From contig NZ_CP016753.1 of assembly GCF_002240055.1 (NCBI RefSeq), positions 930,001 through 994,000 of the forward strand: a stretch of DNA of 64,000 bases, written 5' to 3'. Source of the DNA: Leptotrichia sp. oral taxon 498 (lineage in GTDB: Bacteria; Fusobacteriota; Fusobacteriia; Fusobacteriales; Leptotrichiaceae). This document shows positions 53,382-57,512 of the stretch, piece after piece. The position numbers were made by a program, and so were the translations under genes. The first letter of the stretch is position 1; every line of letters begins with the position of its first letter. Below the pieces are notes generated by a model. It had not been told where the DNA came from. It did no database searches and saw only the letters and a list, made by a program, of their open reading frames with translations.

Positions 53382-54290
53382 ATGTCATATTCAGCAAATT
53401 TAAAAAGGGAAATACTGGGTTTGGAAAATGAGAAAAATGAAGTGGTTTTTGCAGAACTATTTGGAATACTTGCTTCAAAAAATGCGATTTTGGAAAATGG
53501 GCTTTTTTTTAGCACAGAAAATGTTTCATTTGCCAAAAGGGTTTACTCAAATTTGAGAAAAGTTACAAATTTAGATATTCAGTTAAAATATATCATAAGC
53601 AAGCGTCAATTGTTCTCGAAAACATATAGGATAATATTGATTCCCACAAAGCAAAATGAAAAAGAGTATAAAAGTTTTTTTGAAAAGCTATTTTCTTGTA
53701 AAAATTGTTCAGCAAAAAATGTTGAAGATGAAGAAAAAATTGCAGGAGTGATTCGAGGCGCTTTTCTTAGTTGCGGTTATATAAAAGCTCCTGAAAAATC
53801 TTATGCATTGGACTTTTTTTTAGACAGCGAAGATTTTTCAAACTTTTTATTTAATTTATTTAGCGAGATGGGGAAAAAATTTTCAAAAACTGAAAAAAAA
53901 GAGAAAAAAATTGTTTATTTGAGAAATTCGGAAGATATCTTGGACATAATTTTTTTGACAGGAGCAGTAAATTCGTTTTTTGCATTTGAAGAAGTTACGA
54001 TAAATAAAGAGATTCGCAATAAAATTAACAGAAATATGAACTGGGAAATTGCGAATGAAACAAAAAAAATCTCGGCGTCAGAAAAACAAATAAAAATGAT
54101 AAAATACATTGACGAAAAAATAGGTTTAGCTGAACTCTCAAATGTGTTGCAGGAAACGGCAAAGGCACGGCTGGAAAATGAAGAACTCTCACTTCAGGAA
54201 CTTGCAGATTTGATGAATATTTCAAAATCTGGAATAAAAAATAGATTTCGAAGAATTGAGACGATGTATAAAGATTTATTAAATTATTAA
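53382..54290 (+). CDS. whiA: WhiA-family DNA-binding protein
   Basis: 302 residues. WhiA N-terminus (SYSANLKREILGLE), LAGLIDADG-like folds with the IAGVIRGAFLSCGYI and YALDFFLDSEDFSNFL segments, and a C-terminal helix-turn-helix (LSLQELADLMNISKSGIKNRFRRIE). Linked to cell division and chromosome organisation in Gram-positive bacteria. The AAGGAAAAAA start region is adequate. Begins a run with lpxK and serS. Confidence 0.92.
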   Translation: MSYSANLKREILGLENEKNEVVFAELFGILASKNAILENGLFFSTENVSFAKRVYSNLRKVTNLDIQLKYIISKRQLFSKTYRIILIPTKQNEKEYKSFFEKLFSCKNCSAKNVEDEEKIAGVIRGAFLSCGYIKAPEKSYALDFFLDSEDFSNFLFNLFSEMGKKFSKTEKKEKKIVYLRNSEDILDIIFLTGAVNSFFAFEEVTINKEIRNKINRNMNWEIANETKKISASEKQIKMIKYIDEKIGLAELSNVLQETAKARLENEELSLQELADLMNISKSGIKNRFRRIETMYKDLLNY

Positions 54291-54312
54291 ATTCTTAAAA
54301 TTGGAGAAAAAA

Positions 54313-55341
54313 TTGGAATTATTATCAATGATATATGGATTTATAGTATTTTTACGAAATAAACTTTTTGATTTAAATATTTTGAAATCTAAAAAAGTTG
54401 ACGGAGTAAAAGTGATTTGTATCGGAAATATTGTTGCGGGAGGAACGGGGAAAACTCCAGCTGTGCAATATTTTGTGAATGAATATTTAAAAAAAAATAT
54501 GAAAGTTGGGATTTTGAGCCGAGGTTATAAAGGCAAGAGAAAGACGGATTTGCTTTTGGTACGTGATGAGAAGAAAATTTATTGCACTTCAAAAGAATCT
54601 GGAGATGAAGCGTTTTTTCACGCTGAAAATTTTAAAGTTCCAGTAGTTGTGTCAAAAGACAGATACAAAGGTGCAAAATTTTTGAAAGAAAATTGTAGTG
54701 TTGAAGTTATTATTATGGACGACGGATTTCAGCACAGAAAACTTTTGAAGGATGAAAATATTGTTTTGATTGATGCGACGAATCCTTTTGGGAATGGGAA
54801 GTATTTGCCAAAAGGAAGGCTTCGGGAGTCGATAGATGCGCTAAATCGTGCGGATGAAATAATTATCACTAAGAGTAATTATGTTAAAAAAAATGAAATC
54901 TTAAAAATTTTGGAGAAAATAAAAAAATATAGAAAAGAAATTTTTTTTGCTTCCTTTGAAAGTGATTATTTTTACAAATTAAATTTTGAAAATGATGAAA
55001 AATTTGGTAAAATAAATAGTGAAAATAATAAAAATTTTGAAAATAAAAAAAATAAAATTTCTAAAAATATTATAAAAAATAAAAATATTTTAATTTTTTC
55101 ATCTATTGCAAATCCTGCGATTTTTTACAAGACGATAAAAAATTTGGCACCAAAAAATGTGGATGAAATTAAATTTTCAGATCATCATTTGTATAGCTCT
55201 GAAGATTTTGCAGAAATTGAGAAGAAGAGTAAAAACTATGATTTTATTGTAACGACGGAAAAAGATGCCGTTAAAATTGATAAAAATATAGAAAATTTGC
55301 TTGTTTTAAAAATGAAATTTGATTTGAAAAAAGATTTTTAA
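54313..55341 (+). CDS. lpxK: tetraacyldisaccharide 4'-kinase
   Basis: 342 residues. Early membrane-associated helix, then the P-loop IVAGGTGKTPAV, SRGYKGK, SGDEAFFHA, IIMDDGFQHRKL and LPKGRLRESIDAL. It phosphorylates the lipid A precursor at the 4' position, at the inner membrane. TTG 54313 is used because GGAG (54303-54306) fits it; TTG 54301 or ATG 54328 are alternatives. The C-terminus has a low-complexity Asn/Lys insertion (~235-265). Shows that the organism makes lipid A. Confidence 0.92.
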   Translation: MELLSMIYGFIVFLRNKLFDLNILKSKKVDGVKVICIGNIVAGGTGKTPAVQYFVNEYLKKNMKVGILSRGYKGKRKTDLLLVRDEKKIYCTSKESGDEAFFHAENFKVPVVVSKDRYKGAKFLKENCSVEVIIMDDGFQHRKLLKDENIVLIDATNPFGNGKYLPKGRLRESIDALNRADEIIITKSNYVKKNEILKILEKIKKYRKEIFFASFESDYFYKLNFENDEKFGKINSENNKNFENKKNKISKNIIKNKNILIFSSIANPAIFYKTIKNLAPKNVDEIKFSDHHLYSSEDFAEIEKKSKNYDFIVTTEKDAVKIDKNIENLLVLKMKFDLKKDF

Positions 55342-55445
55342 AATTATAAAAAATAAAAAAACAATAAATAAAATAGAGAAAAAAATTAGATAAAAAAACA
55401 AAAAAATAAAAAAACTAAAAACTAAAAAACTGGAAGGAGAAAGTT

Positions 55446-56240
55446 TTGGAGATAAAAAGTTTTTCACAATTTATTTTGGAACATAAAAATCGTTTTGAAA
55501 AAAGAAAATATTTTATTTTGGACAAAAATTTTAAGATTGTTCGTAAAGAGCCATCTTTTATACTTGAGATGGCTTATATTTATTGTGAAAATGAAAAAAA
55601 AGATGAAAAAGTTTTGGAAAATATAAAAAGTGAATTTGAGAACACATTTTTGGAAAAAGAAAAAAATGTAAAAAGACAGTCTAAAATCGAAGCTAAAAAA
55701 TTGGAAGATAGTTTTATTAGAAGTCTTTTTAACAGGGAGAGCATTCATGCACTAAAACTTGGAAACGAAATGTTTTACAAAAATAAGAAAAAATTTTTTG
55801 AAATTTTATATAATTTTTCATTTGTTTCGGCTGATGAAAATAAATTTATAAAAACTTTTTTTGCAGAAAAAATGGTTGAAAAAATTGTTCTTGAAAATGG
55901 CGAAAAATATTCAAATATAAGATTTTTTGTGGAAGAGATTTTAAAAAATATTTTAAATTATTTTACAAAGTCGCAATTCTGTTTTTTGGATTTTGAAGAT
56001 GAAAAAAATATAAAATATTTTTTGGAAAATGAAATTTCTATGCTTTATAAAAAAATTTATGTGGAAAATTTTGACAAAATTATAGAAAAATATGAGATCC
56101 GAAATGTGAAAAAAATAAATTTTGAAAAAAATTATAATTTTGAAGAATTATCAGAAAGTAAAAAATATTATATAATTTTATTTAAACATAAAAATAAAAA
56201 AATAAAAAAAACAAGTAAAAAAATAGAGAAAGGGAAAAAG
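55446..56240 (+). CDS. unknown protein running in frame into SerRS
   Basis: 265 codons from TTG 55446 (AAGGAGAAAG upstream) with no stop before the SerRS start at 56241. Lys/Glu/Phe-rich helical protein; no family recognised. The last stretch is poly-A-rich ([19 protein letters not shown]), where other frames have stops within a few codons. Either a true 688-residue fusion, a protein whose stop was lost by a homopolymer change, or a sequencing error. The 104-bp spacer before it is almost pure A/T. Confidence 0.55.
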
Positions 56241-57512
56241 ATGCTAGAAATGAGATATATCCGTGAAAATTCGGATAAAGTAAAAGAATTTTTAAAAAAT
56301 AGAAAAAGTGATTTTGATTTAGATGCACTTTTAAAATATGATGAAGTGAGAAGAAATTTATTGCAAGAAGTGGAAATGCTAAAAAAAGAGAGAAACGAAT
56401 CAAGTTCATTAATTGGAAAATACAAAAAAGAGGGAAAAGATACGGTCGAACTGCTTTCAAGAATGCAGGAAGTGAGCGCAAAAATAAAAGAATTGGACCA
56501 AAAATTGGCTGAAAATGATGAAAAACAGCTTTTATTGAATTATACAATTCCAAATAAACTAAGTCCTGATACGCCAATTGGAAACGACGAAGACGACAAT
56601 GTTGAAATTAGAAAATGGGGAACTCCAAGAGAATTTGATTTTGAAATAAAATCTCACGATGAATTGGGAGTTAATCTTGGAATTTTAGATTTTGAAAGAG
56701 GTGCGAAACTTGGTGGTTCAAGATTTACAGTTTATAAAAATGCGGCTGCTAGATTGGAAAGAGCGTTAATTGCTTTTATGATTGATGTTCACACTCAAGA
56801 AGAGGATTTTGAAGAAATTTTCACGCCACAGCTTGTAAAAAAAGAAATGATGATTGGAACTGGACAACTTCCTAAATTTGCTGAAGATGCTTATAAAATC
56901 GAAGGGGAAGAAATGTATTTAATTCCAACAGCAGAAGTAACGCTTACAAATTTACATAATGGAGAAATTTTAGATGAAGAAGAATTGCCTAAACATTACT
57001 GCGGATATACAGCTTGTTTTAGAAAAGAAGCTGGTTCAGGTGGACGTGATTTAAAAGGACTAATTCGTCAACATCAATTTAATAAAGTTGAAATGGTAAA
57101 AATTGTAAAACCTGAAACTTCTTATGACGAACTTGAATCAATGGTAAATAGTGCAGAAAAAATCTTGCAGAAATTGAATTTACCATATAGAGTGATTTCA
57201 CTTTGCAGTGGAGATATAGGATTTAGTGCTGCTAAGACTTATGATTTAGAAGTTTGGGTGCCTAGTCAAAATAAATATAGAGAAATCTCATCTTGCTCAA
57301 ATACAGAAGATTTCCAAGCAAGAAGAGCTATGATTAAATATCGTGATAAAGAGACGAAAAAAAGTCATTTTGTACATACATTAAATGGTTCAGGACTTGC
57401 AGTTGGACGAACATTACTTGCAATTATGGAAAATTATCAGCAAGCTGACGGAAGTATTGTAATCCCTGAAGTTTTAGTACCTTACATGGGTGGAATGACA
57501 GTTATTAAGTAA
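56241..57512 (+). CDS. serS: seryl-tRNA synthetase
   Basis: 423 residues, the normal length, from ATG 56241 with AAAGGGA upstream. The N-terminal coiled-coil arm (~25-100) is followed by class II motifs: motif 2 [21 protein letters not shown] and motif 3 [28 protein letters not shown] and [15 protein letters not shown] are also typical. The upstream ORF is in frame without a stop, so a longer fused form is possible, but the internal start makes a normal SerRS certain. Confidence 0.95.

What the first reader, a model, noticed from the sequence alone, without database searches (positions are those of the whole stretch)
55446..57512. Unknown 265-codon ORF fused in frame to seryl-tRNA synthetase
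No stop separates the TTG start at 55446 from the end of serS at 57512, yet serS has its own ATG and ribosome binding site at 56241. If real, the cell could make both a 423- and a 688-residue SerRS. Poly-A runs just before 56241 mean that a one-base error would hide a normal stop.
Basis: seen in the sequence. Interest (0 to 1): 0.5.

Follow-up and report, generated by a model that had tools for sequence, protein, structure and literature searches.

The report
Lost stop codon before serS
The apparent giant seryl-tRNA synthetase comes from one missing base in a run of A's that hides the stop codon of an ordinary neighbouring gene; no related species examined has the fusion, so it is either a sequencing slip or a chance mutation in one strain.

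Summary
In detail: the frame is open from TTG 55446 to the serS stop at 57512 (688 codons), and serS (56241) keeps its own start and ribosome site. But the fusion traces to an indel. The 5' part is a real, conserved but uncharacterised gene of Leptotrichiaceae and Fusobacteriaceae, usually behind lpxK and, in Leptotrichiaceae, before serS. In close relatives it ends ...SESKKILYNFI-stop. The window has six A's at 56160-56165 where all five aligned relatives have seven. This moves the frame off the old stop, still present at 56183-56185, and by chance 25 codons stay open up to serS. Of 31 other family genomes with a serS match, none has an extended serS frame (423-442 codons, against 697 here, stop to stop). 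I cannot tell a base-calling error from a true strain-level deletion: nearby sequence of this genome has few such shifts, so a real mutation is possible. If real, a 688-residue SerRS with a Lys-rich linker could be made beside the normal 423-residue enzyme, but nothing suggests selection for it.

The parts
53382..54290 (+). whiA (operon neighbour)
   Evidence: TIGR00647 E 3.4e-47
54301..55341 (+). lpxK (operon neighbour, directly upstream)
   Evidence: PF02606 E 1.1e-84; TIGR00682 E 2.3e-61
55434..55439 (+). ribosome-binding-like AAGGAG before the TTG start
   Evidence: read; AAGGAGAAA and the TTG are shared with G012
55446..56159 (+). conserved part of the upstream gene (ORF265), 238 codons, uncharacterised family
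   Evidence: match in 34 of 40 genomes searched, own genome included; dN 0.071, dS 0.433 against G012
56160..56165 (+). A6 run; A7 in all five aligned relatives; site of the frame change
   Evidence: alignment A1; position
56166..56240 (+). 25 codons of shifted gene end plus spacer, read only because of the shift (Lys-rich, not conserved; relatives differ here by indels)
56183..56185 (+). orphaned TAA, homologous to the normal stop of the upstream gene
56227..56234 (+). ribosome-binding-like AGAAAGGG of serS
   Evidence: AGAAAGG also in the relatives
56241..57512 (+). serS, seryl-tRNA synthetase, 423 aa, own ATG
   Evidence: TIGR00414 E 2.6e-171; the only match over the serS cut-off in the genome

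Best explanation
Two ordinary co-oriented genes stand here: a conserved gene of unknown function (ORF265) behind whiA-lpxK, and serS. In this record one A is missing, relative to relatives, from an A7 run in the last codons of ORF265. The frame therefore passes the old stop (TAA 56183-56185) and by chance runs 25 codons through the spacer into serS, in frame. SerRS of 423 residues should still be made from its own ATG and ribosome site. Shown: the one-base difference from relatives, the orphaned stop, and the absence of a fusion in the relatives examined. Inferred: that the event is accidental (base-calling error or strain-level slip, roughly even odds), and that the normal SerRS is the main product.
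For: A6 against A7 in 5 of 5 aligned relatives, each with an in-frame TAA after it. In 23 of 23 other family genomes with serS in the fetched locus, a stop separates the two genes or the serS start lies in another frame (L031 repeats the contig of L006). serS open frame 423-442 codons in 31 of 31 other family genomes with a serS match; 1 of 33 had no match. The residues after the shift resemble no relative, and the spacer differs by gaps of 14 and 17 nt from G006 and G012. ORF265 is under purifying selection before the shift (dN/dS about 0.16 against G012). About 12% of off-frame upstream stretches are open anyway.
Against: The rest of this genome looks rather clean: in about 404 kb, 0 of 120 G012 queries, 0 of 113 G003 queries and 4 of 230 G006 queries with hits were split between two frames in G000. 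That leans away from a heavily error-laden assembly, so a real fused frame in the living strain is not excluded. No reads and no second strain were available.
Confidence: 0.92

Rival explanations
1. First sub-case of the best explanation: pure sequencing or assembly error; the strain has A7 and a normal stop.
For: One-base shortening of a homopolymer is a usual error type (general knowledge). A related assembly, G006, shows several such shortenings in long conserved genes.
Against: G000 itself shows few such cases; the other clean T-run shortfalls in G000 (221427, 221458) lie at or upstream of a gene start, and its lactate-permease-like break (63318) is not in a long run.
Confidence: 0.5
2. 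Second sub-case: a real deletion in this strain; the stop is lost by chance; the fusion is made as a by-product, neutral or mildly costly, and SerRS is still made from its own start.
For: Low background of frame breaks in G000. The same gene carries other frame breaks in G002, G006 and G007, so it seems to bear damage; it is the most A-rich of the four operon genes (44.6% A, 13 A-runs of six or more).
Against: Some of those frame breaks may be errors too: the JMUB/JCM genomes were MinION assemblies polished with MiSeq reads (PMC6914741, passages seen).
Confidence: 0.42
3. A functional two-form SerRS, or poly-A slippage that switches between fused and separate products.
For: Both starts have good ribosome sites, and transcription slippage on A runs exists in bacteria (PMC1088944, abstract and passages seen).
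Against: No other family genome examined has the fusion; the run is only six A's, while selection against such runs becomes evident at nine in a large proportion of genomes (PMC1088944); no stable RNA structure follows (z -0.60); the linker is spacer DNA.
Confidence: 0.03

Closest known systems
Bacterial seryl-tRNA synthetase (TIGR00414; PF02403 + PF00587)
   Same: Residues 266-688 of the open frame are a complete ordinary SerRS, 98-99% identical to the two nearest congeners
   Different: Only the in-frame 265-codon prefix, which arises from the shift
Uncharacterised Fusobacteriales protein encoded behind lpxK (no Pfam or NCBIfam model matches the window protein)
   Same: ORF265 shares sequence and gene order with its congeners, and the TTG start with G012
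   Different: Lacks the usual last six residues and stop because of the A6 run
Frame breaks in A runs of AT-rich bacterial genomes, errors or real
   Same: One base fewer in a short A run, gene otherwise intact
   Different: Here the shifted frame happens to reach the next gene

Membership tests
Bacterial SerRS (TIGR00414) | Full-length match above the curated cut-off | tested here: met
   570.3 bits against 301.65, residues 1-416 of serS
Bacterial SerRS (TIGR00414) | N-terminal tRNA-binding arm domain and class II core present | tested here: met
   PF02403 residues 1-105 and PF00587 residues 222-399
Genuine (selected) ORF265-SerRS fusion | Fusion kept in related species | tested here: not met
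   0 of 31 other family genomes with a serS match have an extended frame
Genuine (selected) ORF265-SerRS fusion | Linker conserved as coding sequence | tested here: not met
   The linker is spacer with indels among relatives
Genuine (selected) ORF265-SerRS fusion | A large product in the cell | not testable with these tools
   needs proteomics or an immunoblot
lpxK-linked Fusobacteriales family (ORF265) | Sequence similarity and place behind lpxK | tested here: met
   matches in 34 of 40 genomes; lpxK found in 25 of the 30 loci fetched, serS in 24 of 30
Programmed frameshift or transcription slippage | Long conserved slippery run or downstream stimulatory structure | tested here: not met
   six A's, shifted frame not conserved, no structure

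The most novel reading that the evidence does not exclude
Leptotrichia sp. F0590 truly carries the deletion and makes two SerRS forms, 423 and 688 residues: a natural case of a chance gene fusion to an essential synthetase, caught before selection removes or adopts it.
Probability: 0.3. Interest if true: 0.3.

Novelty: not a real feature. Interest (0 to 1): 0.12.

Why it matters
Mostly as a caution: in AT-rich genomes one base in an A run can create a false giant protein and hide a gene's true end. It also draws attention to a conserved, unnamed gene family between lpxK and serS. If the deletion is real, it is a small natural experiment on how far SerRS tolerates a long N-terminal addition.

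Tried and rejected
Naming ORF265: no Pfam or NCBIfam match for the window protein, only weak scattered ones among 18 family members (DegV 2 of 18, best 1.2e-4), no solved structure (profile of 18 sequences). A structure prediction from two sequences was poor (mean pLDDT 45.8), so no fold search was made. Plasmid collection by tblastn: 2 records, both Fusobacterium, 27-28% identity. One scan of genome contigs gave one locus. Programmed frameshifting: no supporting RNA structure. A paper search for SerRS with an N-terminal extension or fusion (listing and starts of abstracts only) showed nothing that bears on this case; no paper on how F0590 was sequenced was found (listings only).

Some open_frame values (G003 702, G015 637) looked like further fusions; searches show a stop between the genes in both, so these are sums across a stop.

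Full report
What is there. The frame 55446-57512 is open for 688 codons from a TTG. The last 423 codons are a complete serS with its own ATG (56241) and an AGAAAGGG 6 nt before it; it is the only match over the serS cut-off in the genome. Upstream lie whiA (53382-54290) and lpxK (54301-55341).

What the first 265 codons are. They are mostly a real gene. Homologues were found in 34 of the 40 genomes searched, own genome included, and in 32 of 33 family genomes. lpxK lies in 25 of the 30 loci fetched and serS in 24 of 30; the six loci without serS (L025-L030, other families of the order) still have lpxK. Against the close relative G012 the first 238 codons are 205 of 238 identical, with substitutions by codon position 25, 13, 42 and dN 0.071, dS 0.433, so the protein is under purifying selection. 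The TTG start and its AAGGAG are shared with G012. No Pfam or NCBIfam model matches the window protein and no solved structure matches the family profile.

What broke the boundary. In close relatives the gene ends ...SESKKILYNFI, or a near variant, and a stop. In the alignment of five relatives with the window, all five have AGT followed by seven A's; the window has six (56160-56165). From there on the window is read in a shifted frame, the homologous TAA (56183-56185) is out of frame, and the remaining spacer has no stop in that frame. The spacer differs from G006 and G012 by gaps of 14 and 17 nt and more from the others, so the linker is not a conserved coding sequence. An off-frame 75-nt stretch upstream of a gene start is open in 59 of 500 cases in this genome region, so reaching serS is unremarkable.

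Is a fusion found elsewhere? No. In the 23 other family genomes whose locus holds serS, a stop lies before serS or the serS start sits in another frame, overlapping by 4-14 bases in L021-L023. With serS as query, 31 of 31 other family genomes with a match have an open frame of 423-442 codons, the window's 697 (stop to stop); one of 33 genomes (G041, 82% complete) had no match.

Error or mutation? The chromosome length 2,152,181 bp equals that of Leptotrichia sp. F0590, GCA_002240055.1, in Table 1 of PMC7029190 (whole text read); other lengths match F0260 (G012), L. wadei JCM16777 (G002), JMUB3936 (G003), L. shahii JCM16776 (G004) and L. hongkongensis JMUB5056 (G007). The naming rests on lengths alone. 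Comparing about 400 kb of four genomes, queries split between two frames in G000 were 0 of 120 (G012 proteins), 0 of 113 (G003) and 4 of 230 (G006) with hits. The reverse, G000 proteins against G006, gave 4 of 233, all four next to A or T runs. This count does not see shifts in the last tenth of a gene, such as the one at issue. Of the 1-base coding differences between G000 and G006 (67; 60 printed) I counted by eye about eleven clean homopolymer shortfalls in G006 and three in G000, the one at issue included; the other two lie at or before a gene start. So G006 looks rich in errors and G000 fairly clean; this neither proves nor excludes a real deletion. No reads and no second strain could be read here.

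ORF265 elsewhere in the genus. G006 (early), G002 (about codon 117 of the G003 protein) and G007 (a shifted stretch in the middle) also show frame breaks in this gene, while serS is intact in all three and lpxK in G002 and G007. Either the gene bears damage, or its A-richness (44.6% A, 13 A-runs of six or more) makes it prone to errors; the JMUB and JCM genomes are MinION assemblies polished with MiSeq reads (PMC6914741, passages).

Mechanism if real. Ribosomes starting at 55446 would run on and make a 688-residue SerRS with a Lys-rich linker before the tRNA-binding arm; others would start at 56241 and make the normal enzyme. Slippage at the A run could restore the usual end in a share of products, but six A's is short for that (PMC1088944: selection becomes evident at nine in a large proportion of genomes; abstract and passages), and no stimulatory RNA fold follows. 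These steps are inference.

Verdict. Observation confirmed; the fusion is a consequence of one A fewer than in relatives, not a conserved feature.

Noticed in passing
L017 (G002), L003 (G006), L013 (G007): The same upstream gene is frame-broken in three other congeners (about codon 117, early, and a shifted stretch in the middle), while serS is intact.
   Followed up: partly
L075:3318 (G000:C1:853318): A lactate-permease-like gene (name recalled) in the window's own genome is split by loss of one A relative to G006, not in a long homopolymer.
   Followed up: partly
G006, loci L092-L111: Several long conserved genes of this related assembly are split next to A or T runs; it looks rich in homopolymer errors.
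   Followed up: partly
L021, L022, L023: In other genera of the family the serS start overlaps the end of the upstream gene by 4-14 nt, which suggests translational coupling.
   Followed up: no
window 55446-56159: Conserved Fusobacteriales gene family behind lpxK without a Pfam or NCBIfam match for the window protein; function open.
   Followed up: partly
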